Assembly: GCF_000012485.1 (NCBI RefSeq)
Contig: NC_007512.1
Coordinates: 1,117,001 to 1,181,000 of the forward strand
Length of the DNA stretch: 64,000 nt
From: Pelodictyon luteolum DSM 273
Lineage (GTDB): Bacteria > Bacteroidota > Chlorobiia > Chlorobiales > Chlorobiaceae
Direction of reading: 5' to 3'
Position 1 is the first letter of the stretch, and each line of letters starts with the position of its first letter. The notes under the pieces are model-generated. The model worked only from the letters and a program-made list of their open reading frames with translations, did no database searches and was not told the origin of the DNA. This document shows positions 45,949 to 64,000 of this stretch, in pieces. The position numbers were made by a program, and so were the translations under genes.

Positions 45949-47997
45949 ATGATCTCCCTCTCCAAATCCATCCGATGGCTTTTCTGCCTTCTTTTGACCC
46001 TTGCCGCAGCTTTTCCGGCACCAGCGATCAGCGCTGCCGCTGCTGAACCTCTTGCTCTCGGATCCAGCGAATTTTATTACCTCGCAGGCCATATGGAAGT
46101 GCTGAAGGATCCATCTCGAAGCATGGATTTCAAGAAAGCCCTTGAAGCATACGGTCGAGGTGAGTTCCTTCCTCTGCCTGGTACACTAAACGCTGGCTAT
46201 GGTCGAAATGCCTACTGGATACATTTCACTCTCAAGCGGGGAGTGGCGTTCCCTGAAAAATCGATGCTAAGCCTTTCACCAAGTTACACGAACAGCGTCA
46301 AGGTTTATGTCCAGCGTCAAGGCCGATCTCCGCTTCTTCCGTCCTCCTTCAGTCCCGTCCTGCTCGGCAGTGACGTGCCCGTCGCCGAGCGCCCGGTGCT
46401 GAATCCCAATTTTGTCATCCCGCTGGACCTTCAGGCTGACGAACCAGTGGAAGTGTTCGTGAGGGTATACTCGAAAGGCTCAATCAGTCTGACGGGGCAG
46501 GTCGCCACCTATGGGAGCCTCAGGAACAGCACCTATTACAGTATCATGATACAGTTCGGTTACCTCGGCATCGCTGCGGTCCTCTGCGTCATGAACCTTA
46601 TTTTTTTCTTTGCCATCAGGGATCGACTGTTACTGTATCTCGTTCTCTATGTCTTTACAGTTCTTGTCAACAATCTTGCCGTATCGGGGATGAGCACCCT
46701 CTTATTCCCGAACCATGCGCATCTCATCTCCGACTACATGGTATATATGGGAATCGGTGCGCAGGTGCTTGTCTTTTCTGAATTCAGCTACCACCTTTTC
46801 CATGATTTCGCCGGTCTTTGGCTGCTTCGTTACATTCGATTTATGTCAGTTGTTGGTGTACTGACTATTATTTCTGTTTCACTGGGATTCTATGCGTCAG
46901 TAGTGCCTTTCGCCCTTATCGGCATCATTATTCTCATTACTATGCTGCTTCTGACCAGCAAAAAGCTTTTGGTCAGCATGCCGCAGAGCGGCATTTTCAT
47001 CACCGTAGCGTTCGGAATCAGTATGCTGGGGTATTTCTTCCAGATCTTCCGTCTCATCGGCATCATTCCCCTTGAGCCGGGATGGGAGATCAATATGGTT
47101 GAACCCGCCACATTGGTCCATATGGTTCTGATTTCCATCGCACTCTCCGAACGGTTCCGCATCACGGAGAGGCAGTTGGCTGATGCCTCGCGACTTTCTG
47201 AAAAAAGGGCTGTTGAAATAGCTGAGGACATGACTGGCGAACTGAGGGAAAATAAGGAGCGCCTGGAGGTGGCTTTGGCCGCAGAGCATCTGTCTGCCGA
47301 GCGGCAGAACCAGTTCCTCACAATGCTTTCCCATGAGTACCGTACACCTCTGGCCATCATCCAGGGCAATCTGGACATCCTGGCAATCAATTCGGAAAAT
47401 GGTGGCGAAGAGGAGTCCCAGGAACTTCAGAAAATGCGCAGGGCAGTCGCCCGACTGGTCGATGTAATGGATGTGTCACTCATGCAGAACCGCATGCTGG
47501 ACTTGCAGGTCGTCGGGACGTCAACAATAATATGCGCCGATGAATTCATCCGTCAGCAGGTGGATGCCGTCAGGTGGATGTGGCCAGAGCGAAGCTTCAC
47601 CCTTCATTCCGAGCTTGTCGAGGAGAGCGTATTCGGCGAAGCGCCGTTGCTCAATACAGCGCTGTTCAACATTCTTGACAATGCCCAGAAGTACTCTCCC
47701 TGCGATACGGCCATTGAAATCCGGACATGGGCAGATGGTGATTTTGTCATGATCTCCGTATCAAACGGGATTGCAGGTATCTCAATCGGCGATTCGGAGT
47801 CGCTGTTCGACAAATACCGAAGAGGAGCATGTAGTCATGATACCTCAGGGGCCGGTGTCGGGTTGTGGCTTGTCCGCAAGATCATAGAGGAGCATGGTGG
47901 CACGGTTAAGATGAACTCGGCCGCTCATGGCCGGATAAGCGTCGGACTCGCCATACCCGTCGAACGGGGAGAGACCCCGTATTGTCAGAAAAAGTAG
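45949..47997 (+). CDS. 7TMR-DISM sensor histidine kinase
   Basis: This 682-residue membrane kinase has a signal peptide (about 1-33, ...APAISAAAAE) and an extracellular 7TMR-DISMED2-type beta domain (about 40-190, with YWIHFTLKRG). Seven membrane segments follow (about 195-400, including YLGIAAVLCVMNLIFFFAI). A short coiled coil leads into HisKA with the phospho-accepting His in FLTMLSHEYRTPLAI (about 462). The HATPase_c domain has the N box NILDNAQKYS (about 574) and a G box GAGVGLWLVRK (about 634). DISMED2 domains are thought to sense sugars or other extracellular ligands. It likely controls the adjacent secreted-protein genes with the next-encoded regulator. Confidence 0.92.
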   Translation: MISLSKSIRWLFCLLLTLAAAFPAPAISAAAAEPLALGSSEFYYLAGHMEVLKDPSRSMDFKKALEAYGRGEFLPLPGTLNAGYGRNAYWIHFTLKRGVAFPEKSMLSLSPSYTNSVKVYVQRQGRSPLLPSSFSPVLLGSDVPVAERPVLNPNFVIPLDLQADEPVEVFVRVYSKGSISLTGQVATYGSLRNSTYYSIMIQFGYLGIAAVLCVMNLIFFFAIRDRLLLYLVLYVFTVLVNNLAVSGMSTLLFPNHAHLISDYMVYMGIGAQVLVFSEFSYHLFHDFAGLWLLRYIRFMSVVGVLTIISVSLGFYASVVPFALIGIIILITMLLLTSKKLLVSMPQSGIFITVAFGISMLGYFFQIFRLIGIIPLEPGWEINMVEPATLVHMVLISIALSERFRITERQLADASRLSEKRAVEIAEDMTGELRENKERLEVALAAEHLSAERQNQFLTMLSHEYRTPLAIIQGNLDILAINSENGGEEESQELQKMRRAVARLVDVMDVSLMQNRMLDLQVVGTSTIICADEFIRQQVDAVRWMWPERSFTLHSELVEESVFGEAPLLNTALFNILDNAQKYSPCDTAIEIRTWADGDFVMISVSNGIAGISIGDSESLFDKYRRGACSHDTSGAGVGLWLVRKIIEEHGGTVKMNSAAHGRISVGLAIPVERGETPYCQKK

Positions 47998-48055
47998 GAA
48001 TGGCAAAACACGGGTTCTGTTTAGAATGAAAAGAGCATCCTAACACAATCGAACC

Positions 48056-48775
48056 ATGATAAAGTTCAGCTCAAAGTCTCGGCGGGTCATCATCGTCGAA
48101 GACGACCACGATTTGCGTGAAAGCATCATCAAATACCTTAAGCTAAAGGGGTTTGATGTTGTCGGGGTCGGAACCGCCCTCAACTTCTATGCTGAAGTGG
48201 CAGCAAGCGCCTATGCCGTTGCGATACTTGATCTCGCCCTGCCGGATCAGGACGGTCTGGTTATCGCCAAGTTTATACGCGCGAACAGCCGTATGCGGAT
48301 TCTCATGCTCACGGCAAGAATGACGCTTGACGATAGACTTGCAGGCTACGAGTCAGGGGCCGACATCTATCTCGTCAAACCGGTCGATTTCCGTGAACTG
48401 GCTGCATCGCTTGAGAGTCTATTCGGACGCATTGGCGAAGACGTTCACGAGGCTAGTGTAGAACATGCTTGCGGGCCTGAACGTTGGCTGTTGAGCAAAG
48501 AGCGTTGGCTGCTACTCTGCCCTGATGGGAATTCCGTAAAGTTGACGGCAAAGGAATACCTCTTCCTCAGCTGTCTGGCTGAATTTCCGGGCCTGGTTAT
48601 ATCCAGGGCCGATCTGCTTTCCTCTCTTGGTTACCCCCACACGGAGTCCTCCAACCGCTCCCTCGAGTCTCTCGTCTACCGGATGCGCAAAAAAGTGTCG
48701 CCGACCCTTGATACCCCAATCAAGGCCGTAAGCGGCGAAGGCTATACCTTCTGCTCGCCGATTGCATTCGATTAA
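48056..48775 (+). CDS. OmpR/PhoB-type response regulator
   Basis: This 239-residue protein has a receiver domain (RRVIIVEDDHDLRES with the acidic pair; phosphorylation Asp in AILDLALPDQDG, about 58; Lys in YLVKPVDF). Its C-terminal winged-helix domain has VKLTAKEYLFLSCLAEFPG and RSLESLVYRMRKK...KAVSGEGYTF. It is encoded 58 bases after the kinase. A secreted-protein gene follows 117 bases on, so the pair probably regulates the cassette from 48893 on. Confidence 0.93.
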   Translation: MIKFSSKSRRVIIVEDDHDLRESIIKYLKLKGFDVVGVGTALNFYAEVAASAYAVAILDLALPDQDGLVIAKFIRANSRMRILMLTARMTLDDRLAGYESGADIYLVKPVDFRELAASLESLFGRIGEDVHEASVEHACGPERWLLSKERWLLLCPDGNSVKLTAKEYLFLSCLAEFPGLVISRADLLSSLGYPHTESSNRSLESLVYRMRKKVSPTLDTPIKAVSGEGYTFCSPIAFD

Positions 48776-48819
48776 TGGACCTCTCTCCAGCTGTCAGAAA
48801 ATATCAGTATACGTTTGTT

Positions 48820-48890
48820 GATTCGTCGGTCACTATTGACCAACTTGGGTTTGTGAGGATTATCTCCCCCAACATTATCCCCGACGAATC
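48820..48890 (+). promoter_or_regulatory. Nested inverted repeats in the lectin-gene leader
   Basis: GATTCGTCGG (48820-48829) is an exact reverse complement of CCGACGAATC (48881-48890), and inside it TTGGG (48845-48849) matches CCCAA (48868-48872). The right arm ends two bases before ATG 48893, where no Shine-Dalgarno site is visible. The layout suggests an mRNA structure, or a protein site, that controls translation or transcription of the lectin gene. Confidence 0.6.
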
Positions 48891-48892
48891 CA

Positions 48893-50059
48893 ATGAAACA
48901 CCCATTCATTCAATTCAAGCGTTCAAGGCTTTCGGCAGGACTGATTGGCCTGTCGCTCGCCCTGCCGATGGCCTTCACGCCACAGATTACTAATGCCTAT
49001 ATCTGGGATGACGCCATACATGTGGGTAAAAGTGTGACCGATATAGGGTCATCGGCATACAAGAAGGCGAAGAGCGCTGCATCATCAGCTGCGAAAATTG
49101 CCGGAGATTCAGCTGTCAAGGCCGGCACAATGGCTGCGAGTGCAGATTATGACAAGGTTGCTGATATCGTGATTGATGCAGCATCAAACCCTGCTCCGTT
49201 CCGCAATGCGGTTCTTGATGAGCTCAGCAAACTCCCCCCTGGAAAGCTCGGTGAATTAAGCGGATCAGCCGCTGGTGTCTATAAGAATATTGACGACCAG
49301 TACGGGGAAGCTAAGGCGGCCACCTATAAAAGCTTATACAAGACTTACAAAGGCGATCTGCAAGAACTCATACGCCGTGCAAAAGAAAAGGATTTCGATA
49401 TCAGTGAATACCGGAAATACTCACTTTACTACGGCATAGCGACAGCTGACTGGAGTAATCCAACAAAGGCGGCAACTGAAATTGCCAAGAATCAGTATAC
49501 GGCGTTCTCATTCTACAGCAAGCATACCCTTCGAGGTACAGCGACTACAGAAACACGTAATCATATCGGCCTTACCAATGAGCGGATCGCTGAAGGCTTG
49601 AAGGAGCTACAGGAAGAACTCAAGGGAATCAATGCTGGTAAGGCAGGGCTAGCCATAATGTCCGAGTTTATGGGATCTGCCAGGAAGTCATACATCGGAC
49701 CTGGAGAATATTTGCCGTCGGGGAGTTTCATCATTTCCGATAACGGCAAATACTCAGTTGTTTTCCAGAAAGACGGAAATCTGGTTTACCAAGGGGAAAT
49801 CATGTTCGGACTCTTGAGCCACAATCGTCATGGGGATTTCGGGAAATACCGCGCACCGAGATGTATCCAGCAGTCTGACGGGAACCTCGTTGTCTATAAC
49901 GGGAGCAGTGTTGTTGGGGCGACTCTGGCTCACGGCAAGGCGGGCGGCAAGTATTTTACGATCGTTCAGAATGACGGCAACGTCGTGACCTATCCCGGAA
50001 CAGGCCCGTCGGACGTTCACGGCCCTGCCATCTGGTCATCGGGGACTGTCGTTAAGTAG
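48893..50059 (+). CDS. Secreted protein: unknown helical domain + bulb-type lectin domain
   Basis: This 388-residue protein has a signal peptide (about 1-35, ...FTPQITNAYIW). Its alpha-helical domain of unknown family (about 40-265) contains YKNIDDQYGEAK, DISEYRKYSLYYG, ATADWSNP and FYSKHTLRG. The C-terminal domain (about 270-388) is a bulb-type, D-mannose-binding lectin fold: three Q-x-D-x-N-x-V-x-Y-like repeats occur at FQKDGNLVYQG (about 289), QQSDGNLVVYNG (about 325) and VQNDGNVVTYPG (about 358), the usual three-fold symmetry. The helical domain recurs in the chagasin gene at 53718. Likely exported and glycan-binding. Confidence 0.8.
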   Translation: MKHPFIQFKRSRLSAGLIGLSLALPMAFTPQITNAYIWDDAIHVGKSVTDIGSSAYKKAKSAASSAAKIAGDSAVKAGTMAASADYDKVADIVIDAASNPAPFRNAVLDELSKLPPGKLGELSGSAAGVYKNIDDQYGEAKAATYKSLYKTYKGDLQELIRRAKEKDFDISEYRKYSLYYGIATADWSNPTKAATEIAKNQYTAFSFYSKHTLRGTATTETRNHIGLTNERIAEGLKELQEELKGINAGKAGLAIMSEFMGSARKSYIGPGEYLPSGSFIISDNGKYSVVFQKDGNLVYQGEIMFGLLSHNRHGDFGKYRAPRCIQQSDGNLVVYNGSSVVGATLAHGKAGGKYFTIVQNDGNVVTYPGTGPSDVHGPAIWSSGTVVK

Positions 50060-50103
50060 GATCATAAATATGCTCATTTATTTGTAAAACAGAAGGGGAT
50101 CAC

Positions 50104-53100
50104 TTGGCTGTTATGGCTAAAGCGGTTGAACGGCCCAGTGGCACTAGATTTTCCTTAACCCAAACAGTGCCAGCAATGAAGTATTCAGTGAGAAGGCATC
50201 CAGTCATCCAAGCTTCGCTGCTCCTTGCCATTTCTAGCCCTGCCCCAGTGGGCGCGGAAGCCATCAACCCATTCAGTGAAGCGATTTCACAGAAGATACA
50301 GGCCGAGAAAGGCCATACCCCAAGCAGCCATGCGCACGCTTTCATGACGCCGACGAATGGTCTGTTCCGAGCCGCGGTGCCTGCGGCAATGACTCCGTCC
50401 GCGTCATCGGCTCATGCCGTTTATTCATCTTCGGCATCATGGCACAGCGAGGCGGAGTTCCTTGCCGGAGCCAGGGCCAACGGCGATGCTTGGGAGGCGA
50501 AAGGGCTGGTCGGGCCTGAGATTAAGACCATGCATTTGCGCCTAAGGTATGCTTATACCTATGATTTCGTCTATAACGACCGCGGATCCGGAGCTAAGGC
50601 AAATATCGCCATCTGGCGTCCCCGGGTTCCTGACGGGTGGGTACGCCTTGGTGATTACGCGCAGCCGGGAGCAAACTATAATGAATCCCAGCCAACCGGT
50701 AAGCCGCCTTGTCTTATCGTCATGTGGGACGACCGGTTTCCCCAGGGTGATTCGAAGAACGCCCCGTACCTTAAGCCGGCTACGGGCTTTACAAAGGCAT
50801 GGGATGATACGAAGACCCATGGCAAGATGGACGGAAGTTTCTGGGTACCCATAAGTGCGAAAGGGTACGCACCTGTCGGCTGTGTTGCGAACGGGAGTCA
50901 CAGCGCCCCAGCCGACCTCAACTGTGTCTACACGGTCAATACCGACTTGCTTACATGGACAGGGAACAGCTGGATCGGTCAGATATGGACCGACAGGAAA
51001 TCTGGTGGAGTACATGACTGTGCTCTTTGGGCCTGGAAGCAGGATTCCCCGTCCGATAAAATCCTCCCCGGCATTCCGACCAACTCATTTTGGGCCGTCG
51101 GTTCCTACACGAAGAGTTTGGGTAGAGCCCCTGGAATGATCCTTGGCTTGAAGCCCGATATCGCAAGGTCTGAGGCAAGCAATGCGCTCATCGACACATA
51201 TAGGCGGACATTAATCAGCGGTGTGAAGAAGGTCTATCAGGATAGTGCCACCGTTAAGCTTAAGCTCCTTGAAGCCAGTGTGAAAGCGAGGGCGAACGAA
51301 GCTGCCGGAGGAGGGGGCTCATTTGCGTCGATAGCGTCGGACTCCTTCATCAGTCCGGAGCTGAACGCCAAGATCAAAGCGCTGCCTGCAGTCGGTGCAA
51401 ACGGGGGGACGACGGTATCAAATGATATGCCGACGGTCTCCTATGCAGCAACAATGTTCACTGGAAAGGCGAACCAGATTGCAGCTCTTGGCCGTTCTGT
51501 CGACCTGGGTCAGCTGCCTGGATTCGACAGCATCATGCAGCTCAAGGGGGTTACCGTAACCAATGCCAGTTTCAGTCAGGGGAGTATCACTTCTGGCAAG
51601 GAAAAAGGACAGCCTTGGATGTGCCTCAGCGGAGACGTTACCATTTCGACCCAGAAGTTCGGATCGGTTTCAGGCAAAGTGGTCGCCTTGTCGCGGCTCT
51701 ACCAAAAGGAAGGCCTTCGCACCGGCTATGTGATTAGTGTTCCCTCAGCAGATGTGACGTCGAAGTTGCCGGCATTCGGGGCTCCTCCTCTAAATGCAGT
51801 CAAGTTTTCCGACGCCGCAATTACCTTCGGTCAGGAAGCCCATAGCTGGGAAGTAAGCGAATTGCCGACTGAAGTGAAGGATTTGCTGTCAGTCTATGTG
51901 CCTACGGGGAAAGAGGCGCTCAGGTTCCCCAAAGGAGAAAATGTCTGGCTTGTTTCTTCTGTTGCAGGCAACAGCCTGTTCAGTGCTCCGTTTAGCGTCC
52001 TTGATGCAGCCCCCCCGAAGGTGCTCTTTTCGGCGATCTTTCCAGACAAGCCTGCGGATTCGTTCAAGTTGCGGGCAAAGTTGCTTAGCAGTTACAAGGC
52101 GGCTTTTCTTCCTCATGGAATCAAGATTGACACGCCTGACCTGGAGATTAGCTCAGGTCCTTTTAATGGGGTAACGCTATGGTCAAACCTGCACATTGAC
52201 CTTTCGAAGCAGTTCCAAGTCGATCTTCCAGCGCGGATTGATATTCCTGTAGGAGCGAATCCCCTTGCAGGAATAAGCGTATCGGGCCTTATTCCCGGGA
52301 GCTGGAAGAATCCCATGGGGCTGAAAGGCCTTGAATTGGATTCCATGAGGGTTGGCGGCACGTTTGGCGGCGTTTCGCCGAGTCTTGGCCTGGGAGGAAT
52401 CTTGGACCTTGGTCAAGGATGGAAGTTCGATCTAGCCGGTTCATTCTCATTCGCTTCGCCTGTGGCTCTTTCAGGCATGAGCTGCTCACTTGACCGCGAT
52501 CTTTCACTGGGTGACCTGGTTTCCCTTTACGGGATCGTCTTGAAGGCGGCTACCCCTTCTGCGCAGCTACCTGCGCCGTCGACGGTCGATCTGCCCCTTG
52601 CCAACCTCAAGGTGATGAAGCCGAGCTTCGCAATTGCCGAATTTGACATCCCTGCCATGAACCTTCGTCAGGGGTTGACCTTTGATGGGGGCCTAAGCAT
52701 CGGAACTGCCCAGCTGGGATCTGCTTCAGTCTGGATGCTTGCCGGCAAGGGGCTGGACTGCAAAGGGTGGATTTCTCCGTTTTCGTTTGGTCCGTTCAAG
52801 GTCAGCGGGAATGGCAAGGACAAGCTCTACAATACTCGTGATGATGCCCCTTATCTTGACCTGGAGTATACCCCGAAAACCGCGTACAGTGTCAGCCAAC
52901 ACTGTTACCTAAGTGGCCGGACTATGGTGGCCGGAGCCCCCATGAACATCCAGCTTAACCTGGGCAAGGATAATCTGGCAGTAGATATCGATGGCAAGCT
53001 GGGAGGCCTTTTCGATGCCCATATCGGCGCACAGGGAACCCAAGCGGTACTCTCCGATATCAGCAAGGGAGGAAGCCTCGCTTTTCAGGCAGAAATGAGG

Positions 53101-53688
53101 AACTCAGGCATTGATGCTCTTGCAGGGAAAATCGACGGCCAGCTGGGATCCAGCTCTGTTGTAAAAAAAGCCATTGATCTTGTCGGGGGGGGATTCGCTA
53201 TTCGCTCTGTCCAGTTCTCCGGAACACTTGACGGAATCAATGCTGGAGCAATTTCCGGCGGATCAGTCAAGGCGAGTGCATTCGGCAGGCCTGCCGATAT
53301 TTCGTTCAGTGCGACGAATGTACCAGGGCTTGAATCGCTGGTATCCGGTCTGATGGTCAAAAAGGTTGAAAGTATTGCGATGGCGGTGCTGAAGGATCCG
53401 CTCGCATTCTTCGGGAATGTCTGCACGAATATGGGTGATCTGGGGACCGATGTCCTTTCCGGTGTTACCAGTAAGTTGCAGAAAAGCCCGACGCAGTACT
53501 TCACTGATGCCCAGACCGCAGCTACATCGGCTGGGGATCAGGCGTATCAAGCTGCCAGTGCTGCGGCGACTGTAGCAAAAGAGACGGCTGACAAGGCAGC
53601 AAGGGCTGCCGAACAGGCGGCCAAAAAAATGGCTGAGACCCTGAAGAAGATCGCGGAAGAGGCCTGGAAAGCTGTACGATTCTGGTAA
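50104..53688 (+). CDS. Very large secreted Vps62/DUF946-like protein (copy 1)
   Basis: This protein of up to 1194 residues is secreted (hydrophobic stretch ASLLLAISSPAPVGA, about 38-52). Its N-terminal domain (about 113-338) matches the Vps62/DUF946 pattern of three lobes: NDRGSGAKANIAIWRPRVP, DGSFWVPISAKGYAPVGC and IWTDRKSGG. A long beta-rich body (about 450-1100) follows with repeated short motifs (e.g. LKGVTVTNASF, FSDAAITFGQE, GWKFDLAGSFSF), and an alanine-rich helical tail ends in AWKAVRFW. The start is uncertain. TTG 50104 has AAGGGG 5 bases upstream, but ATG 50113 and ATG 50176 are also possible; the last directly precedes the signal peptide but has no visible site. The function is not known. 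The paralogue is at 57740. Confidence 0.72.
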   Translation: MAVMAKAVERPSGTRFSLTQTVPAMKYSVRRHPVIQASLLLAISSPAPVGAEAINPFSEAISQKIQAEKGHTPSSHAHAFMTPTNGLFRAAVPAAMTPSASSAHAVYSSSASWHSEAEFLAGARANGDAWEAKGLVGPEIKTMHLRLRYAYTYDFVYNDRGSGAKANIAIWRPRVPDGWVRLGDYAQPGANYNESQPTGKPPCLIVMWDDRFPQGDSKNAPYLKPATGFTKAWDDTKTHGKMDGSFWVPISAKGYAPVGCVANGSHSAPADLNCVYTVNTDLLTWTGNSWIGQIWTDRKSGGVHDCALWAWKQDSPSDKILPGIPTNSFWAVGSYTKSLGRAPGMILGLKPDIARSEASNALIDTYRRTLISGVKKVYQDSATVKLKLLEASVKARANEAAGGGGSFASIASDSFISPELNAKIKALPAVGANGGTTVSNDMPTVSYAATMFTGKANQIAALGRSVDLGQLPGFDSIMQLKGVTVTNASFSQGSITSGKEKGQPWMCLSGDVTISTQKFGSVSGKVVALSRLYQKEGLRTGYVISVPSADVTSKLPAFGAPPLNAVKFSDAAITFGQEAHSWEVSELPTEVKDLLSVYVPTGKEALRFPKGENVWLVSSVAGNSLFSAPFSVLDAAPPKVLFSAIFPDKPADSFKLRAKLLSSYKAAFLPHGIKIDTPDLEISSGPFNGVTLWSNLHIDLSKQFQVDLPARIDIPVGANPLAGISVSGLIPGSWKNPMGLKGLELDSMRVGGTFGGVSPSLGLGGILDLGQGWKFDLAGSFSFASPVALSGMSCSLDRDLSLGDLVSLYGIVLKAATPSAQLPAPSTVDLPLANLKVMKPSFAIAEFDIPAMNLRQGLTFDGGLSIGTAQLGSASVWMLAGKGLDCKGWISPFSFGPFKVSGNGKDKLYNTRDDAPYLDLEYTPKTAYSVSQHCYLSGRTMVAGAPMNIQLNLGKDNLAVDIDGKLGGLFDAHIGAQGTQAVLSDISKGGSLAFQAEMRNSGIDALAGKIDGQLGSSSVVKKAIDLVGGGFAIRSVQFSGTLDGINAGAISGGSVKASAFGRPADISFSATNVPGLESLVSGLMVKKVESIAMAVLKDPLAFFGNVCTNMGDLGTDVLSGVTSKLQKSPTQYFTDAQTAATSAGDQAYQAASAAATVAKETADKAARAAEQAAKKMAETLKKIAEEAWKAVRFW

Positions 53689-53717
53689 TTCTACCTCCAA
53701 AAAAACGCATCATCATC

Positions 53718-54848
53718 ATGAAAATCGAAAAGCTGTTTGCAACCGTTGCTTTGACAGGCATGGTCCTGTTCCAGCCTCAGTCTAGTGTCTATAGCTGGCC
53801 AAGTATTCCTCATCCAAAACCACCTGTTCCGATTCCGCATCCCCCCATTCCGAATCCGCCGGTGCCGGTTCCTGTACCCAAGCCTCCAGTCAATCCGGCA
53901 GAGCAGATCCGTCATGCCACAGAGGCTGCCACGAAAACCATGAACAAGGCTGCTTCGGGGGATTTCGATGGCGTCGCTGACGACTGTATTGGGGCGGCAT
54001 CGAATCCCGCCCCGTTCAGGGACGTTGCACTGAAAGCACTTGTTCGTGCAACCCCCTCCCAGCTCCGGGGAGTGTCCGAGAAAGCGACATCTATCTACAA
54101 AAACCTTGATGACCAGTACGGACAGATAAAGGCGGATACTTATCGCTCTCTTTACGAATCCTACAAGGGCGACTTCAAAGAAATTGCCGCCCGGATTGAA
54201 AAGGGCGACTACGATATCAGCGAGTACAGGAAATACGCGCTGGCATACGGGCTGGCTACTGCCGACTGGAGCAATCCAGCGGCAGCTGTCGAAAAGATCG
54301 CCAGTAACCAGTATGCAGTCTACTCCTGGTACAGCAAGCATACCATTCGGGGTGCGGCCATAAGTGCAACCCGCAACCACTTCGGTGCTGACGATGCCGC
54401 TGTAGAGGGGGGGATCCGGCAGTTGGCCCAAAACCTCAAGGAGGCAAACGCCGGAGTGGCCGGTGGGGCAATCATGGCTGAGTTCGTCAAGAATCTCAGA
54501 ATCATAACCGTTACGGTCAAGCCTCAGGAGGAGACACTAATAGAACTTCCAGCAAATCCTTCGACAGGGTATTCTTGGTCGTTCGTGAGTCTCGATCCCG
54601 GTGTGGTTACATTTAACGTCTTAGACAAGTCTGCTGTGGCAACCGGAATCGCGAAGAATACATGGATGCCATTTAAACCCCCAATACATCCAGTCAAGCC
54701 TGTCGTAGTAGGGAAGGCAGATGCCGTCCACATCAAAATCAGGGCGAATAAGGCTGGATCCGGTCGGATCTTGGGTCTCTACTCCCGCCCTTGGGACAAG
54801 GAGACTGGAGAGCTCACTGAGATAAGGGTCATCTCCGACAACCGATAA
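53718..54848 (+). CDS. Secreted protein: helical domain + chagasin-type protease inhibitor
   Basis: This 376-residue protein has a signal peptide (MKIEKLFATVALTGMVLF...) and a proline-rich linker of repeated P-x-P (about 28-60). Its helical domain (about 61-265) is nearly the same as in the lectin gene (YKNLDDQYGQIKAD, DISEYRKYALAYG, ATADWSNP, YSKHTIRGA). The C-terminal domain (about 266-376) carries chagasin/I42 marks: NPSTGYSW (loop BC, about 279), GSG (loop DE) and the R-P-W motif in LYSRPWDKE (about 356). Chagasin-like proteins inhibit papain-type cysteine proteases. The gene begins 29 bases after the Vps62 gene and belongs to the same cassette. Confidence 0.78.
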   Translation: MKIEKLFATVALTGMVLFQPQSSVYSWPSIPHPKPPVPIPHPPIPNPPVPVPVPKPPVNPAEQIRHATEAATKTMNKAASGDFDGVADDCIGAASNPAPFRDVALKALVRATPSQLRGVSEKATSIYKNLDDQYGQIKADTYRSLYESYKGDFKEIAARIEKGDYDISEYRKYALAYGLATADWSNPAAAVEKIASNQYAVYSWYSKHTIRGAAISATRNHFGADDAAVEGGIRQLAQNLKEANAGVAGGAIMAEFVKNLRIITVTVKPQEETLIELPANPSTGYSWSFVSLDPGVVTFNVLDKSAVATGIAKNTWMPFKPPIHPVKPVVVGKADAVHIKIRANKAGSGRILGLYSRPWDKETGELTEIRVISDNR

Positions 54849-54909
54849 CCGGCTCCACTATTAAAAGCATTCGTCCATCCCTCAAAAAAATCGAGTCGTA
54901 TTGATCAAT

Positions 54910-54954
54910 GCCAACGCAAGAACTCAAAATTATCTCTTGAAGGCTTGCGTTGGC
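54910..54954 (+). repeat. Inverted repeat upstream of the secretin gene
   Basis: GCCAACGCAAG (54910-54920) and CTTGCGTTGGC (54944-54954) are exact complements separated by 23 bases. It lies in the 217-base gap after the chagasin gene and about 110 bases before the secretin start, with no T run, so it may be an operator or mRNA structure. Confidence 0.7.
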
Positions 54955-55065
54955 CATTATACGCATGCAATTTTACTTCGCCTGCCTGCACATTTTAACT
55001 CAAACTGCGGGAGTATTCCTGATTGCAATTGTAGGTTATCAATAACTGCATCACCCCCATTTTAC

Positions 55066-56832
55066 ATGCCTGTCTTTACATCCGGACTCATAAGGGCTGT
55101 ACTGGCCATAATTCTTCTTCAGTCTGTTCTCGTAACAGCCGGTCCTGTTTACGCGGGAAAGAAAAAGTCTGAAACACGGGAGCTTGCCGGCAAGGGCATC
55201 ACCGAACTCCAGTCCGGTGATTTCATCAAGGCCAACGAGTATTTCAACCGGGCCCTGAAGCTCGATCCCACGTCCTCGCAGCTGAACTTCCTCAACGCCC
55301 TGACCTACCACGCCCGCACCGGCAGCGAAGGCGTGCAGAACTACGATCTTGCCGACGAAGGCTACCAGATAGCCATCCGCCATGATGATACCAATTGGCT
55401 GTACTATTACACTTATGGCTTGAGCCGGCTTGATCGCAAGCAATACAGTTCAGCAACCCAGCTTCTTGCTGACGCAGTTTTACTTAATGACCGTGAACCG
55501 GATCTCCTATATGCATTAGTGTATGCCGCCTATTATGCATCTGATTTATCAAGTGCCAATGCTGCAATGTATCGACTAAGCGCTCTTGAGCCTGAAAGCC
55601 GAAGGGTAAAAGCAGCTAAAATACTGCTGGCAGCGGCATCCGGTGACAATATCAGTGCGAGTAAGGAACTATCCTCATATGAGCGCCTCTTCCCTGATGA
55701 TGATTCCCTGCGAAATTTGAAAATCAGGGCAGGCGAGTGGAATCATATGATTGAGTATATCCGTAGTAATCCGGATTCCATGAGTGAGGGACAAAATCCC
55801 GGAGCCGCCTCAATGGAGGAAAATTTGCCTATGCCGGACATGGTAATCATTGATGCCGTGATCTTGCGGAATGAAGACGAGATAACTCATAGTAAAGGGG
55901 TCAACCTTCTTAATGGTCTCTCGCTTCAGTTCGGCAACTCATCAAACCCAGCAATCTCATTCAATAGGGCATATTCAAGTTCATGGACACATAATCCGGA
56001 TGGTACAGACGATACCATAGCTAAAAGCATAACCAATACCATTACAGGCATTATTTCAGTGCCGGCACTGACCTATAGCATGAACATTTTCAATATGGGC
56101 AGTTCGAAGATTGATGTTATTGCCAGACCGACGCTCACCGGTATGCTGAATATTGACTCCGAATTCTTTTCTGGAAATCAGATTGATGCTGCAGTTGCTG
56201 GAAGCGCGGATTCAAGCCCAATATCCATCAACAAAGAAATCGGAGTTACCATGCATGTCCGACCCAATGAAATTACCCGCAACAAGGTAAAACTTCATGT
56301 CGAAGTATCCCGATCATTTCTTGATACAACGGATAAAGATAAAATCACTTATCAGTATATGGTCACCACATCAAATACCAAGGTGACAACTGATGTGGAT
56401 ATCGCATTCGGTGAAACCATGATTCTTAGCGGCCTATATGAGCGCGAAGCTGTAGATACGCGGGACGGCGTGCCAATTCTTCAAGACATCCCACTATTGC
56501 AGTACTTGTTCTCTAAAAAGACTGAGCGATTGTTTCAGCGCTCGGTCATCATTCTTTTGACTCCATACATCAACCCGAAGTCATACAATTTTAACACAAG
56601 GGCCACCGTCGTCCAAGATCTTAAAAAAAACAAGTCCCTAATAAAATTACGAAAGAAGCACCCGGACTGGTATGTCGATGTTGACATGACCAGCGACAGG
56701 ATTTTGGAACATTTACAGCATAATCATTTTGTTAAAGAATTTCGTAGCGGTGATTTAATCCGGTATAAAATGGTCAATCCAGCAAATCTTGACTATAGGG
56801 TAGGAAGGGGTTTTGGGTTCCTGTATTACTGA
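55066..56832 (+). CDS. TPR-secretin outer-membrane channel protein
   Basis: This protein of 588 residues has a signal peptide (about 1-30, ...SVLVTAGPVYA). Tetratricopeptide-like repeats span about 35-235 (LAGKGITELQSGDFIKANEYFNRALKLDP, TNWLYYYTYGLSRLDRKQYSSATQLL). The C-terminal secretin domain (about 260-520) has the family marks VDIAFGETMILSGLYE and GVPILQDIPLLQYLF before VIILLTPYI. There are no N-domains of the GspD type. Start ATG 55066 is preferred over 54901 because it begins with the signal peptide. No ATPase, pseudopilin or GspE gene lies nearby, so it is a stand-alone secretin. It is plausibly the export pore for the neighbouring large secreted proteins. Base composition here is clearly more A+T-rich than upstream genes. 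Confidence 0.82.
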   Translation: MPVFTSGLIRAVLAIILLQSVLVTAGPVYAGKKKSETRELAGKGITELQSGDFIKANEYFNRALKLDPTSSQLNFLNALTYHARTGSEGVQNYDLADEGYQIAIRHDDTNWLYYYTYGLSRLDRKQYSSATQLLADAVLLNDREPDLLYALVYAAYYASDLSSANAAMYRLSALEPESRRVKAAKILLAAASGDNISASKELSSYERLFPDDDSLRNLKIRAGEWNHMIEYIRSNPDSMSEGQNPGAASMEENLPMPDMVIIDAVILRNEDEITHSKGVNLLNGLSLQFGNSSNPAISFNRAYSSSWTHNPDGTDDTIAKSITNTITGIISVPALTYSMNIFNMGSSKIDVIARPTLTGMLNIDSEFFSGNQIDAAVAGSADSSPISINKEIGVTMHVRPNEITRNKVKLHVEVSRSFLDTTDKDKITYQYMVTTSNTKVTTDVDIAFGETMILSGLYEREAVDTRDGVPILQDIPLLQYLFSKKTERLFQRSVIILLTPYINPKSYNFNTRATVVQDLKKNKSLIKLRKKHPDWYVDVDMTSDRILEHLQHNHFVKEFRSGDLIRYKMVNPANLDYRVGRGFGFLYY

Positions 56833-56922
56833 TTTACATCTAACAATAATAGCAAAGAATCCCTTGAATTGTGAGTCTTTCAGTGCCCGCAAGGCTATGA
56901 TCTAGAATAAATGGAGGATTTA

Positions 56923-57678
56923 ATGGCTCTTATGTTTGCTGTTCTATTTGGAACGGCGATGTTTGCCGTTACCGGAGCATTCATCACTAGAAAGTTTTTC
57001 GGGTATAAAGTACTGGAGAAAAACAATGATGTAGCAGGCTTCATTTATGGCGTTCTGGGTGTGATGTACTCCGTTTTCCTTGCATTCGTAATCATTGACG
57101 AATGGGAAATTCGCCGTGATGCAGAATCAAACATTCAGCAAGAGGTCAACAGCCTTGCATCGGTGTATCGTGGCCTAAATCTCCTTGAAAATCCTCAGGT
57201 AACGCGAATTCAGAGCACCATAGAAGAATATTTCAGGGTTGTAGCAAATAATGAATGGCCCCTCATGGCTGAAGGAAAGGCAAGTGTTGCGGCAGAGAGG
57301 CAATCTATTGACATTATTCAGTCTATTTACCACATAGAGCCACGGTCAAGATTTGAAGAACTTTGGCTCGTGCGTATCATAAGCGATCTTGATGCATTTG
57401 AATCTGCACGCTTATCAAGAATAATGTCTGCAAAATATACCCTTAATGTTTTTTTCTGGGCAGTCTTGGTAAGTGGTGCCATTCTGACCATTGGATTTGC
57501 ATGGTTGTTTGGCACCCCTAATTTTTTGGCGCAGTCAATCATGATGGCTTTTCTCGGCGCTGTGATGGCAATGCTGATCTGCATTGCCCTTTCCCTTGAC
57601 CATCCATTCAAGGGAATCATACCTCTTGATTACGATGAGTTTCTCAACCAATCGGAATTAATCAAAGGGGATGGATAG
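56923..57678 (+). CDS. DUF4239-type integral membrane protein
   Basis: This protein of about 251 residues has four probable membrane segments: two near the N-terminus (about 1-23, 42-62) and two near residues 170-190 and 200-220. Between them lies a long soluble helical region (EWEIRRDAESNIQQEVNSLASVYRGLN, EEYFRVVANNEWPLM). This pattern and the C-terminal SLDHPFKG fit DUF4239 (bestrophin-like). The start at ATG 56923 follows GGAGG by 5 bases; ATG 56911 lies upstream of that site and is less likely. A+T-rich like the secretin gene. Role in the cassette unknown; it may be a channel or scaffold. Confidence 0.78.
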   Translation: MALMFAVLFGTAMFAVTGAFITRKFFGYKVLEKNNDVAGFIYGVLGVMYSVFLAFVIIDEWEIRRDAESNIQQEVNSLASVYRGLNLLENPQVTRIQSTIEEYFRVVANNEWPLMAEGKASVAAERQSIDIIQSIYHIEPRSRFEELWLVRIISDLDAFESARLSRIMSAKYTLNVFFWAVLVSGAILTIGFAWLFGTPNFLAQSIMMAFLGAVMAMLICIALSLDHPFKGIIPLDYDEFLNQSELIKGDG

Positions 57679-57739
57679 ACCTTTGACTGTCGGTGTTCAT
57701 TGATTAGCTGTATATCCCAATAATATAATCATTTCGACC

Positions 57740-60700
57740 ATGTTATTATTCCATTGGCTCATTAGGTCGTTGCCGACAAGGGGGATTAAGGTTCTTTTTG
57801 TTTCATCAATGTTAGTGCTGGTGCCTGTCTTAAGCGCAGATGGAGGTGGTATTCATATACGCCCCATTGGCGTCCCCCTGCGGGAACCGGTCATCCCACA
57901 TTTCATTTTTGATGTTATATCTGATCCGCTGACTCAGGATCAGGTCAACAAGGGAAATACCAATCCGTCAACTTGGACGAATCATGACCAATTTCTAGCT
58001 GGTGCCACTCTTGCAGCCAAGCAATATGAAGCTAAAGGATTGGTTGGTCCGGAAATCAAGACACAGCATCTTATCGTCCGCTATTCATATCATTACGATA
58101 AGCAGATCTGGAATGACAGCGGAAGCGGTGCCTACAGCAACATTGCATTTTGGCGTCCATCGGTTCCTCCCGGGTGGGTAAGGCTCGGAGACTATCCGGA
58201 ACCAGGGGCGAATTACGCCGGAGTTGCGCCATATCCCCCCTGTCTTATTGTCATGTGGGATGACCGGTTCCCGCAGGGGGACGCCAATGGAGCATATATG
58301 AAAAGGCCCTTGCGTTACGATTGGTCATGGGACGATTCAGGCTCTGGCGGTAGATATAATGGTTCATTTTGGCTCCCAGTTAGTCCGAATGGATACTCTC
58401 CCGTAGGTTTTGTTTGCTCAGGAGAAGCTATTGACGGGAATGGTCATAATGTCCCGACAGATATGACCTTGGCCTATTGCGTGAGAAACGATCTTTTGAC
58501 CTGGACAGGATCCAAATGGATCGGTCCGCTTTGGACTGATGAGGGCTCTGGGGCAAGGGGGCAGTGCTCCGTGATGAGTTGGACCCAGACTCCTGAGGGA
58601 GCTGCGATTGACCCTGGTGTGGTGACGAGTTCATTCTGGAATATCCAGTGGACACGTCATCCCAATATGGCAGCATCCGGGCCAGGAATGATTCGTCTCT
58701 TAAGGCCAGAGCAGGCGCAATCGAAAGCGATTGCTAAGGCTACCAAAATTCATGCCACAGGTTTATCTCAAGGAATTCAAGCAGTAGTGCAGACAGCGCT
58801 CAAAGCGCATCAGGACTCTCTGACACTCGTTACAAACCAACTCCATGCAACGATCCCCTCTGATCCGGATAAGATCTCGCGTCCTGCCCAGATTAGTGGT
58901 AATGAAAAGCTGATAGGAGGAGATACGGCCAGCCAATCTATCCCTGCAGTAACCCATTCGCCAAGCCAGTTTTCAGCAACCGGCAGCATGCTGGCCGGCA
59001 TCGGCAATTCCATTGGCCTTGACCAGCTTCCCGGATTTAATCAGATTCCATTGCTGAAGGGCGTTAGGGTCACTGATGCAGAGTTTACGCAGGGAACCAT
59101 CGCCACAGGCCCAGAAGCAGGCCAGCCCTGGATGTGTCTCAGCGGAAATGTCACGGTACAAACCAATCGGTTCGGATCTGTCAGCGGTCAGGTGATCGCT
59201 CTCTCCAGGCTCTATAAAAAGGAAGGCTTGCGGACCGGTTATGTCATTAAAGTGCCAACAACGGCGGTAGCGTCAAAACTGCCCGGCTTAAACAGCGATC
59301 CTTTGAATGCGCTGCATTTTTCCGATGCTGCAGTTACCTTTGGTCAGGAGACTCATTCCTGGAATGTTGCCGATCTACCGGTAGAGGTCAAAACTGCATT
59401 GCAGGCATATGCTCCAACCGGAAAAGAACTCATCACCTTCCCGAAAGGAGAGAATGTCTGGCTTGTAGCATCAGTACAAAGCAACAGCCTGTTGGCAGCA
59501 CCATTCACAGTGCTTAATGCAGCGCCTGCCAAAGTACTCTTTACAGCGATTTTCCCTGAAAAACCGACTGATCCGTTCAAACTCAGGGCAACCCTCCAGA
59601 CTAAATACAAAACGACGGGCTTTCTTCCTTCCGGAATCAATCTGGATATGCCTGACATGGAAATCAGTACGGGTTCATTCAATGGTGTGACGCTGTGGTC
59701 CGACCTGCACCTGAACCTCTCAAAAAAACTGCATGTCGACCTGCCGGCCCGTCTTGATTTTCCGGTTGGCGTCAATCCGCTTTCGGGCATCAGCGTTTCA
59801 GGTATCATCCCTGGAACATGGAAAGACCCCATGGGCCTCAAGGGCTTGTCGCTGTCTGAGATGAAGATTTCCGGCACCTTCGGGTCACTGCCGAATCTTG
59901 GACTTGCTGCGAATATGAACCTCGGTCAAGGCTGGGATCTGGATTTAGCTGGTGCACTGTCCTTTACCTCACCGGTAGCGCTAACAGGTTTACGATGCGA
60001 TATACCACGCGACCTCAGTCTTGGTGATCTGATTTCGCTGCATGGCATCATCATGAAAGCTGCCATACCATCAGCTCAAATTCCGAGTCTTGCGACGCTG
60101 AAGTTGCCAATAGATGTAGTTAAAATCACCAAGCCCTCGTTTTCGATTGCGGAAGTAGATATGCCTGCTCTCAACTTCAGGCAGGGGATAAGCTTTAACG
60201 GAGGCTTGAAGCTCGGGACAGCAGATCTGGGCTCTGCCTATTTATGGATGCTTGCCGATAAAGGCCTGGAATGCACGGGATGGGTCTCGCCGTTCAATGT
60301 CGGTCCCATAAAGATCAGTGGTGCCGGGCCGGACAAGCGCTCCGGGACTCCGGATGACAAACCGATGCTCGACTTGAAGTATACTCCAAAGTCGGCCTTT
60401 GATGTCTCACAGCGTTGCTACTTGAGCGGAACGGCTAGTATTCCGGGTGTTGGGCTTGATGCCTTTGTGGATATCGGGAAAGATAACTTGAAGATGAATC
60501 TTGATGGGATGCTGGCCGGAGTCCTTGATGCCCAGATTGTAGCATCGGGAACACAGGCCGTGCTTACAGATGTCACAAAGGGAGGGGATATGGCATTTGA
60601 AGGGTTCCTTCGTACCCACGCGGTCCAGAACATTAAGAATGCCGTGAACAATTCCATTGGAGGCAATAGTGTAGTAAAGAAAGCCATTGACTTTATCGGT

Positions 60701-61192
60701 GGAGGCATTGATATCCGATCGGTACGTGTCAAGGGATCACTTGATGGTCTTTCAAAAGGGACTCTGGCGAGCGGCTCTGTTCATGCTGCAGCATTCGGAA
60801 AAGCAATCAATATTGATTTTGCGCAGGTATCCATTGCCGATTTCAACACAAGCATAGCATCCCAAATTGGCGCTAGGGTCATCACTATTGCTCAAGACCT
60901 AATCACTAATCCTGGTGCATATTTTAAGGCACTTTGTGATCTGTCAGTTGAACTGGGGGGGGACGTCGTCAAGCTGTTCAAAATGGATCCCACGCAATAT
61001 TACTCACAAGCGACACAGGACATAGCCAGTGTCGGTATTAAAGCTTTTGATTCGGCCAAGCAAGGAGCCCAGTTTGCGCAGAACACGGCCAAGGAAGCCG
61101 CAAAAGCTGCAGAAGGTGCTGCGAAAAAGGTTGAAAAGGTTCTGTCCGACATTGCTAGTGGAGCCTTGAAACTGCTCAAAAGCTTTTTTTGA
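57740..61192 (+). CDS. Very large secreted Vps62/DUF946-like protein (copy 2)
   Basis: This 1150-residue paralogue of the protein at 50104 has a signal peptide (about 12-33, ...VLFVSSMLVLVPVLSADGG). Its Vps62-like domain (about 80-307) has three lobes: WNDSGSGAYSNIAFWRP, WDDSGSGGRYNGSFWLP and WTDEGSGARGQCSVMSW. A beta-rich body follows with motifs that match copy 1 at equal spacing (GVRVTDAEFTQG, FSDAAVTFGQETHSW, KGENVWLVASV, DLSLGDLISLHGI, QRCYLSGTASI). The alanine/lysine-rich helical tail ends in ALKLLKSFF. Both copies end in an aromatic pair. The two are similar but not identical throughout, so this is an old duplication. No enzyme motif is visible. Confidence 0.75.
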   Translation: MLLFHWLIRSLPTRGIKVLFVSSMLVLVPVLSADGGGIHIRPIGVPLREPVIPHFIFDVISDPLTQDQVNKGNTNPSTWTNHDQFLAGATLAAKQYEAKGLVGPEIKTQHLIVRYSYHYDKQIWNDSGSGAYSNIAFWRPSVPPGWVRLGDYPEPGANYAGVAPYPPCLIVMWDDRFPQGDANGAYMKRPLRYDWSWDDSGSGGRYNGSFWLPVSPNGYSPVGFVCSGEAIDGNGHNVPTDMTLAYCVRNDLLTWTGSKWIGPLWTDEGSGARGQCSVMSWTQTPEGAAIDPGVVTSSFWNIQWTRHPNMAASGPGMIRLLRPEQAQSKAIAKATKIHATGLSQGIQAVVQTALKAHQDSLTLVTNQLHATIPSDPDKISRPAQISGNEKLIGGDTASQSIPAVTHSPSQFSATGSMLAGIGNSIGLDQLPGFNQIPLLKGVRVTDAEFTQGTIATGPEAGQPWMCLSGNVTVQTNRFGSVSGQVIALSRLYKKEGLRTGYVIKVPTTAVASKLPGLNSDPLNALHFSDAAVTFGQETHSWNVADLPVEVKTALQAYAPTGKELITFPKGENVWLVASVQSNSLLAAPFTVLNAAPAKVLFTAIFPEKPTDPFKLRATLQTKYKTTGFLPSGINLDMPDMEISTGSFNGVTLWSDLHLNLSKKLHVDLPARLDFPVGVNPLSGISVSGIIPGTWKDPMGLKGLSLSEMKISGTFGSLPNLGLAANMNLGQGWDLDLAGALSFTSPVALTGLRCDIPRDLSLGDLISLHGIIMKAAIPSAQIPSLATLKLPIDVVKITKPSFSIAEVDMPALNFRQGISFNGGLKLGTADLGSAYLWMLADKGLECTGWVSPFNVGPIKISGAGPDKRSGTPDDKPMLDLKYTPKSAFDVSQRCYLSGTASIPGVGLDAFVDIGKDNLKMNLDGMLAGVLDAQIVASGTQAVLTDVTKGGDMAFEGFLRTHAVQNIKNAVNNSIGGNSVVKKAIDFIGGGIDIRSVRVKGSLDGLSKGTLASGSVHAAAFGKAINIDFAQVSIADFNTSIASQIGARVITIAQDLITNPGAYFKALCDLSVELGGDVVKLFKMDPTQYYSQATQDIASVGIKAFDSAKQGAQFAQNTAKEAAKAAEGAAKKVEKVLSDIASGALKLLKSFF

Positions 61193-61224: not shown

Positions 61225-61258
61225 ACAGCATATATGCGATTCATCGCATATATGCTGT
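61225..61258. repeat. Long perfect hairpin after Vps62 copy 2
   Basis: ACAGCATATATGCGAT and ATCGCATATATGCTGT are exact complements over 16 bases with a 2-base centre (functional loop about 4 bases). It lies 33 bases after the stop of the large paralogue. There is no clear T run, so it may act as a transcript 3' end stabiliser, an inefficient terminator or a protein site. Confidence 0.8.
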
Positions 61259-61271
61259 CACTAGTGTCCGG

Positions 61272-61520
61272 TTATATCTTAAATACATTCGACTGGTTAT
61301 CGGTATAGGTATTCTCGATTGTGCCGCCTGAATTCGTAACTAGTTGTAAAATATCGACTTTCTTGAATACGCTGACGCTCAAGATCTCGGCGTGATTTTT
61401 GGGTGATGTCGCGAAACGGGTTTCCAATAAACTACAGCCCGCTTCCGGTTGTTTGATTTGCTGACCAGTACATTTCCCCGCGATTGTGAATTGATGTCGT
61501 GAAACACAGGGTTTCAATAG
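61272..61520 (-). pseudogene. Probable IS4-type transposase C-terminal remnant
   Basis: The minus-strand frame reads ...FATSPKNHAEILSVSVFKKVDILQLV...DNQSNVFKI and stops just before CCGGACA. An 'ILS-S-FxK-xILQ' block followed by a short hydrophilic tail ending N-Q-x-x-x-F resembles the C-termini of IS4-family transposases as I remember them. The FATSPKN part resembles a conserved segment normally found further upstream, suggesting an internal deletion. No intact catalytic D-D-E region or paired terminal repeats are visible. Confidence 0.35.
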
Positions 61521-61524: not shown

Positions 61525-61842
61525 TATTAATGTATGGAGGGCCGCTGGAGAGCAGTGGAGCGGGAGCGAAACCGCTCTCCCTCTTGCCCTCTCCACCTCC
61601 TACTGGGAAATTCAGTATTCCCTCACGGGTCGGCCTACAGTTTTCCAGCGGTTACGTTTATTCGAGAGCTCGCTTTCACAAGTTGGTTCCCCTTGGTGGG
61701 ATAATAGGCAGCGGAGGATATTGGTCAATAAAAGACCTGTTTTTATTACAGCCCCCCCCTGCATCCTTGATATCCGTCCATTATGTCAGTTGCTGGAGGA
61801 GCAGCGCAAAAATTCCCGTTTAAATCATCTCATCGGCAAAAA

Positions 61843-63047: not shown

Positions 63048-63334
63048 TTATTGAAGTAGTCGTGATTGTAATAGTTGGATACATTCAACCATTGGGATCA
63101 AAAGGAGACCCTCATGTCATTAGAGCAGGCAGAAGCGTTCCCCGAGAGCAGATTATGAGCATCGAGGATGCTGCCGGACGCCTTCCCTTCATCCACATTG
63201 AGGGATTGAGGATTGTCATGATGACTGGCTCCCAAGATAGGTTCAGTGCCAAGTGATTCTTCGGCCTTGGAATATCTCCTGCTGCACCTTATGCAATGAT
63301 TACAAGCCGGGGTCTTTGGCTTCTTAACCTGTCC

Positions 63335-64000
63335 ATGTCTTTCTTGCAACTCCAGTCCCTCGGTGCCATGCACGAACGCCAGCGATCAACAGGTTCCTTA
63401 CTGTTCCAGGCATTCAGCCTGATGGTTGTTGTTGCGCTGCTTTCCCTTGCTGCATATCCTTCCCTGCTCCATGCAGAACCCCCGCTTAAAAAAGCTTCCC
63501 TCATTCCTCTCTGGAGCCCGCAGGCACAGTTTGCCGGGTATTATGTTGCCCTTGAAAAAGGGCTGTACCGCCGTTACGGGGTTGAACTGAGTATCCTGAA
63601 CGGAGGCTCGGGCAATTCGCCAGTCGAGGCCCTCCAGAGCGGCAGGGCCGACTATGCGGTGATGTGGCTGACCACGGCGTTGCGGCATCGTGATGCAGGG
63701 ATACGTCTTGTGAACATAAGTCAGGTTATCCAGCGCTCTTCGATGATGCTTATTTCCAGGAAATCCAGCAGGATTGATTCATTGCAGGGGATGAACGGAA
63801 AAAAGGTCGGACTGTGGGACGGAGATTTATCGATTCCACCACTGACGTTGTTTTCCCGCAGGGGCATTACGATCCGTCAGGTACCGCTAACAAATACGGT
63901 GAACCTGTTCCTGCGCGGGGGGATTGAGGTGACCTCGGCGATGTGGTACAACGAGTATCACGTGATCCTGAACTCAGGGGTGGACGCCGATGAACTCAAT
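63335..64000 (+). CDS. NMT1/THI5-like periplasmic binding protein, N-terminal part
   Basis: The gene runs off the right edge; 222 codons are visible. A signal peptide or anchor (FQAFSLMVVVALLSLAAYPSLLHA) is followed by an NMT1/THI5-like solute-binding domain: SLIPLWSPQAQFAGYYVALEKGLY, LNGGSGNSPVEALQSGRADYAVM, GMNGKKVGLWDGD, MWYNEYHVIL. Such domains bind pyrimidine precursors, sulfonates or nitrate; in some proteins they are fused to sensor kinases, which cannot be judged here. ATG 63368 is an alternative start; 63335 gives an extra 11 residues. Confidence 0.8.
   Translation, partial: MSFLQLQSLGAMHERQRSTGSLLFQAFSLMVVVALLSLAAYPSLLHAEPPLKKASLIPLWSPQAQFAGYYVALEKGLYRRYGVELSILNGGSGNSPVEALQSGRADYAVMWLTTALRHRDAGIRLVNISQVIQRSSMMLISRKSSRIDSLQGMNGKKVGLWDGDLSIPPLTLFSRRGITIRQVPLTNTVNLFLRGGIEVTSAMWYNEYHVILNSGVDADELN

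What the first reader, a model, noticed from the sequence alone, without database searches (positions are those of the whole stretch)
45949..61192. Candidate undescribed secreted-protein cassette: sensor pair, lectin, inhibitor, two giant Vps62-type proteins, secretin, DUF4239
Seen: eight consecutive same-strand genes with short gaps: 7TMR-DISM kinase, OmpR regulator, helical+lectin protein, giant Vps62-like protein, helical+chagasin protein, TPR-secretin, DUF4239 membrane protein, second giant Vps62-like protein. All non-regulatory products except DUF4239 carry signal peptides. Known: lectins bind glycans, chagasins inhibit papain-like proteases, secretins form export pores, 7TMR-DISM kinases sense extracellular ligands. 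Inference: a surface or exported system for contact with other cells (attachment, defence against predators, or antagonism), regulated by an external ligand. I know of no named system with this set.
Basis: partly seen in the sequence, partly recalled or inferred. Interest (0 to 1): 0.92.

Follow-up and report, generated by a model that had tools for sequence, protein, structure and literature searches.

The report
Swappable sensor-controlled secreted-protein gene block
A green sulfur bacterium carries, behind a conserved pair of sensor genes, a so far unique block of secreted proteins (a lectin, a protease inhibitor, two giant target-binding-type proteins and an outer-membrane pore) at a spot where its close relatives carry quite different secretion genes, which suggests a plug-in site for tools used on other cells.

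Summary
Eight consecutive + strand genes lie at 45949-61192, and family searches confirm every named domain. One name needs correcting. The "Vps62" domain is a β-tripod, and it aligns to the insecticidal protein GNIP1Aa with three DxG[ST]G motifs in register. The two giants (50-60% identical) share an orphan body of about 600 aa and an amphipathic C-terminal helix. The lectin and chagasin proteins share an orphan helical domain (54% identical). New evidence for a unit came from the same chromosomal address in relatives. DNA identity to sister G025 is 95-99% outside and about 75% or unalignable inside. There the orthologous sensor pair precedes DUF4402 pilin-like genes; in G028 it precedes a Nif11/NHLM peptide exporter. 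Two other relatives show scars. So this is an exchangeable, probably horizontally acquired export/surface module behind a conserved sensor. That the secretin exports the giants, and that they bind other cells, is inferred. Both structure predictions failed (pLDDT about 30).

The parts
45949..47997 (+). Sensor histidine kinase (P0001): 7TMR-DISMED2 + 7TMR-DISM_7TM + HisKA + HATPase. Left edge of the variable block lies at about its start codon.
   Evidence: Pfam; DNA identity to G025 drops from 99% to 75% here
48056..48775 (+). OmpR/PhoB-family response regulator (P0002)
   Evidence: Pfam; orthologues follow the kinase in G025 (55%) and G028 (65%)
48792..48816 (+). Candidate regulator-binding site TGTCAGAAAATATCAGTATACGTTT (TGTCAG/TATCAG direct repeat, 10-bp period), conserved at the same offset after the regulator stop in G025
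   Evidence: no hit at 3 mismatches or fewer in G028; inference only
48893..50059 (+). P0003: signal-like N-terminus + orphan helical domain + mannose-binding bulb-lectin domain (two exact QxDxNxVxY sites, one degenerate)
50176..53688 (+). P0004: first beta-tripod giant (ORF from 50104; likely start 50176)
53718..54848 (+). P0005: signal-like N-terminus + the same helical domain + chagasin I42 domain (NPSTG and RPW loops present, GxGG loop degenerate)
   Evidence: motif definition from PMC5014320
55066..56832 (+). P0006: TPR-secretin (ORF from 54901; likely start 55066)
   Evidence: Pfam; homologue with the same architecture on an Asticcacaulis plasmid
56911..57678 (+). P0007: bestrophin-like (PF14023, formerly DUF4239) membrane protein, four predicted TM segments
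57740..61192 (+). P0008: second beta-tripod giant, with three canonical DxGSGxxx[N/Q] motifs at residues 126, 199 and 267
61225..61258 (.). Near-perfect 34-bp inverted repeat after the last gene; hairpin, possible transcription terminator
   Evidence: self-match on the minus strand
61388..61475 (.). 88-bp remnant of the end of an IS element (97.7% identical to the end of an IS3-like transposase gene at the same address in G029)
   Evidence: IS3 assignment read from the translation

Best explanation
A sensor-controlled, exchangeable surface/secretion cassette. The 7TMR-DISM kinase reads an extracellular, perhaps sugar-like, cue and its OmpR partner switches on the module behind it. The module makes four Sec-exported binding proteins in two paralogous sets. 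Each set is a small protein of helical domain plus exchangeable tip (lectin or chagasin) and a giant of beta-tripod plus orphan body plus amphipathic tail. I infer that they cross the outer membrane through the stand-alone TPR-secretin, and that they act at the cell surface or outside, binding glycans and proteins of other cells and blunting papain-like proteases, mainly for attachment or protection. Shown: gene order, domains, duplication, block boundaries, and module replacement behind the same sensor in two relatives. Inferred: regulation, export route, target.
For: Block edges match the gene set: identity to G025 is mostly 95-99% upstream to about 45950 and 97% from about 61855, but 75% or none between. 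Sensor orthologues at the same address precede DUF4402-pilin, chaperone-like and 1188-aa genes in G025 and a Nif11 peptide/NHLM exporter in G028. Related sensor pairs elsewhere precede TpsB (G010, G084, G085; TpsA in G010) and DUF4402-like genes (G018). GC3 is 0.43-0.60 inside versus 0.66-0.73 in most upstream genes. Beta-tripod: 6fbm_A, 1.3e-8. Lectin. Chagasin. Two matched paralogous sets: 54% helical domain, 50% tripod, 60% body. Amphipathic C-termini: mean moment 0.44 and 0.46, above every one of 300 shuffles. The genome's other two secretins sit in Tad-type loci with their own ATPases. The secretin relative in Asticcacaulis also lies among signal-bearing unknown proteins. Precedents: a DISMED2 domain binds carbohydrates (PMC8544897); a secreted bacterial chagasin-like protein inhibits papain-like host proteases (PMC5014320).
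Against: The set recurs nowhere searched, so no conserved neighbourhood ties the genes together. Only some sensor-pair loci surveyed have a secretion or surface gene directly downstream (about 7 of 18 or 19); others are followed by unrelated genes. The chaperone-like and usher-like genes of G025 match no curated family. Secretins normally work with an inner-membrane machine, and none is in the block. No structure could be predicted.
Confidence: 0.45

Rival explanations
1. Antagonism or anti-predator system: the beta-tripod giants are toxins or parts of toxins aimed at protists or competing microbes. The lectin and beta-tripod recognise the target, the body acts on its membrane, and the chagasin protects the proteins from lysosomal cysteine proteases.
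For: The beta-tripod is the proposed target-recognition part of the insecticidal MACPF protein GNIP1Aa. The lectin resembles lectin-like bacteriocins. Chagasins target papain-like proteases. In G028 the same address holds a RiPP export module, often antimicrobial.
Against: No MACPF or other toxic domain is detected. No immunity gene is recognisable. The body has no known relative.
Confidence: 0.25
2. An island of unrelated genes: HGT and IS activity brought the secretin, bestrophin-like protein and secreted proteins together without a shared function.
For: GC3 differs between parts: secretin, bestrophin and second giant 0.43-0.50, first lectin/giant/chagasin set 0.53-0.58. IS remnant at the right edge. 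Secretin and bestrophin-like gene sit between the members of the second paralogous set.
Against: Same strand, short gaps, intact ORFs, and two matched paralogous sets in one block behind a conserved sensor.
Confidence: 0.2
3. The TPR-secretin serves another system (for example a Tad pilus of the genome), while the giants are periplasmic or outer-membrane structural proteins.
For: Two Tad-type loci with ATPases exist in the genome. Signal-like N-termini alone bring proteins only to the periplasm. The C-terminal amphipathic helices could hold the giants to a membrane.
Against: Each Tad-type locus has its own secretin. The TPR-secretin is absent from other Chlorobia, whose secretins match only distantly (20-34%).
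Confidence: 0.1

Closest known systems
Beta-tripod proteins (GNIP1Aa, PDB 6fbm; Pfam Vps62 PF06101)
   Same: Beta-tripod with three DxG[ST]G motifs aligned in register; putative target-recognition role
   Different: GNIP1Aa is a 536-aa MACPF pore former with the tripod at its C-terminus; here the tripod is N-terminal, no MACPF is detected, and a body of about 600 aa and an amphipathic tail have no known relatives
Lectin-like bacteriocins (putidacin L1, pyocin L1) and plant bulb lectins
   Same: Bulb-lectin domain with QxDxNxVxY sugar sites
   Different: One lectin unit fused to an orphan helical domain with a signal-like N-terminus; scores 41.7 bits against the putidacin family cut-off of 275
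Bacterial secreted chagasin-like inhibitors (Cip1 of Pseudomonas syringae)
   Same: I42 domain with a signal-like N-terminus, NPxTG and RPW loops
   Different: GxGG loop degenerate; fused to the helical domain
Type II / Tad / type IV pilus secretins
   Same: C-terminal secretin domain (PF00263)
   Different: N-terminal TPR repeats; far below the GspD, PilQ and MshL cut-offs; no GspE/F or pseudopilin partners in the block
Sensor-linked TPS, fimbrial-like and NHLM/RiPP loci in Chlorobiaceae
   Same: Related 7TMR-DISM kinase and OmpR regulator directly upstream; two of them (G025, G028) at the same chromosomal address
   Different: A secretin with beta-tripod giants takes the place of TpsB/TpsA, DUF4402 pilin-like or Nif11/NHLM genes

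Membership tests
Beta-tripod domain (Pfam Vps62) | Sequence similarity to the GNIP1Aa tripod and DxG[ST]G repeated three times | tested here: met
   P0008: 6fbm_A 1.3e-8, three motifs. P0004: one canonical motif plus two degenerate
MACPF/CDC pore-forming toxin | MACPF domain | tested here: not met
   No MACPF match in P0004 or P0008
Putidacin L1-family bacteriocin | Full-length family score | tested here: not met
   41.7 versus cut-off 275; lectin domain only
Bulb lectin | QxDxNxVxY sites | tested here: met
   Two exact, one degenerate; PDB matches
Chagasin I42 | Family score and the NPTTG, GxGG, RPW loops | tested here: inconclusive
   Pfam 7.7e-11 above cut-off; NPSTG and RPW present, GxGG not
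Type II secretion system | GspD-level secretin plus GspE/F/pseudopilins nearby | tested here: not met
   TIGR02517 72.7 versus 351; the two clear T2SSE ATPases of the genome lie in Tad-type loci
7TMR-DISM receptor kinase | DISMED2 + 7TM + kinase | tested here: met
One secretion system | Secretin needed for export of the giants | not testable with these tools
   needs a mutant

The most novel reading that the evidence does not exclude
A new one-step outer-membrane export system: a stand-alone TPR-secretin that releases giant beta-tripod proteins and their helical lectin/inhibitor partners without a type II machine, carried as one alternative at a sensor-controlled exchange site where Chlorobia swap whole secretion systems.
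Probability: 0.2. Interest if true: 0.8.

Novelty: new variant of a known kind. Interest (0 to 1): 0.55.

Why it matters
Green sulfur bacteria live in dense layers with grazers and partners, yet little is known of the proteins they use on other cells. A conserved sensor with swapped secretion modules would show how such tools are acquired and put under existing control, and gives a defined place in each genome to look for new ones. The giant body and the helical domain are orphan protein families. The stand-alone TPR-secretin makes the question whether a secretin can export without a type II machine directly testable.

Tried and rejected
Structure prediction of P0008 and P0003 with two-sequence alignments gave pLDDT 29.7 and 32.1, so no fold search was run. 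A 90-column hit of the giant profile in G252 (2.8e-5) falls in a repeat-rich adhesin that reads like an MBG-repeat protein; too weak to use. Back-translated pattern scans of 84,980 genomes and of viral contigs found no relative, but that method reaches mainly close relatives. G029 was first taken for a clean empty site; it is an IS element next to the conserved flank. Internal repeats in the giant body were sought and not found. A VPS13-type lipid-transfer reading from the Vps62 name was rejected: the name is a misnomer. No shared operator in G028 at 3 mismatches or fewer.

Full report
Observation. The eight genes are real, on one strand and close together, and their domains are confirmed. The window lies in a one-contig genome of 2,364,842 bases. 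Likely starts are 50176 for the first giant and 55066 for the secretin.

What the proteins are. The Pfam name Vps62 is misleading: the literature explains it as a spurious alignment and calls the domain a β-tripod (PMC7613979; PMC8624791). A direct search of PDB sequences with P0008 finds one entry, GNIP1Aa (6fbm, 1.3e-8), and the alignment puts the three DxG[ST]G motifs in register. P0004 keeps one motif clearly. Both giants continue into a body of about 600 aa with no relative in Pfam, NCBIfam or PDB and end in an amphipathic, alanine-rich helix. Its mean hydrophobic moment is 0.44 and 0.46, against 0.20 on average in shuffles, and above all 300 of them. P0003 and P0005 share a helical domain (100 of 186 residues identical) with no known relatives. 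It is followed in one by a bulb lectin with two exact sugar motifs and in the other by a chagasin domain with two of three loops intact. So the block holds two paralogous sets, lectin protein + giant and chagasin protein + giant, with the secretin and the bestrophin-like gene inside the second set.

Is the set found elsewhere? Not in the collections searched. The giants and the helical proteins have no homologue in the other Chlorobia among 98 genomes or in 394 sampled Bacteroidota, apart from a weak 90-column hit in G252. In plasmids only the tripod and lectin domains match, and the helical-chagasin protein nothing; in phages the giant finds nothing. The secretin's only good relative is on a plasmid of Asticcacaulis (28% over 512 aa, 5e-42, same TPR-secretin plan), beside signal-bearing unknown proteins; none was found in the Bacteroidota sample at 1e-15. 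Bestrophin-like relatives occur in 12 other genomes of the genus. The giants and the helical domain are thus orphan so far, and an origin outside the phylum is likely; GC3 of 0.43-0.60 against 0.66-0.73 in most upstream genes agrees.

The address. The closest genome, G025, matches mostly at 95-99% up to the kinase start codon and at 97% from about 61855, whereas the kinase is at about 75% DNA identity and the rest up to the hydrolase is unrelated except parts of the regulator. Between regulator and hydrolase G025 has a DUF4402 protein, a 293-aa protein that reads like a periplasmic chaperone and a 1188-aa protein that reads like an usher; only DUF4402 is supported by a curated model. In G028 the same flanks (tail-specific protease, RRM gene, hydrolase) and the same sensor pair enclose a Nif11-type RiPP precursor, a radical SAM maturase and an NHLM exporter. 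Although the protease genes of G028 and the window are only 73% identical, the hydrolase is 93%, which points to recombination at the right edge. In G022 a fragment of the kinase remains; in G029 an IS3-like element follows the left flank, and 88 bp of its end lie at 61388-61475 in the window. Related sensor pairs elsewhere in the family are followed by TpsB (G010, G084, G085), by TpsA in G010, or by DUF4402-like genes (G018), but others by unrelated genes.

How it most likely works. The kinase senses something outside the cell; a DISMED2 domain in another protein is reported to bind carbohydrates (PMC8544897). The regulator switches on the module; a 25-bp element with a 10-bp-spaced direct repeat lies at the same distance after the regulator stop in the window and G025 although the genes behind differ. 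It is a candidate operator only, and G028 lacks a match. The products reach the periplasm by Sec and, I infer, leave through the TPR-secretin. The genome's other two secretins are in Tad-type loci with ATPases, so no type II machine is evident for it. Outside, lectin and tripod would bind glycans or proteins of another cell, and the chagasin would blunt papain-like proteases, as Cip1 of P. syringae does (PMC5014320). Whether the purpose is attachment, protection from grazers or antagonism cannot be settled from sequence.

Confidence. That this is an exchangeable module behind a conserved sensor: about 0.75. That the secretin exports the giants: about 0.4. That the target is another cell: about 0.6. 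As a best single account of the whole: 0.45.

Noticed in passing
L076 (G028) 5280-14900: At the same address another Chlorobium carries a Nif11-like RiPP precursor (Cys-rich core after a GG site), NHLM exporter genes and a radical SAM maturase: a small peptide cluster behind the same sensor.
   Followed up: partly
L077 (G010), whole locus: A related sensor pair is followed by a TpsB transporter and a TpsA-type protein (1982 aa, cut by the end of the stretch) with MBG repeats.
   Followed up: partly
window 61577-61659: 83-bp piece repeated at 83% identity in the genome near C1:753,800 (L093), some kilobases from a Tad-type locus; nature unknown.
   Followed up: no
L091 (G000 C1:1249500-1262000): Own paralogous sensor pair followed by two copies of a 203-aa signal-bearing protein with the same N-terminal 45 residues but for one, a single receiver domain and an 881-aa protein without curated family.
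   Followed up: no
L100 (Asticcacaulis sp. AND118 plasmid) 12563-19458: Five-gene group around a TPR-secretin: a TPR protein, a Tat-like signal protein, the secretin and two signal-bearing unknowns; may be a second example of a stand-alone secretin system.
   Followed up: partly
window 63296-64000: NMT1/THI5-like periplasmic protein, cut by the window end; its neighbour in G025 was not analysed.
   Followed up: no
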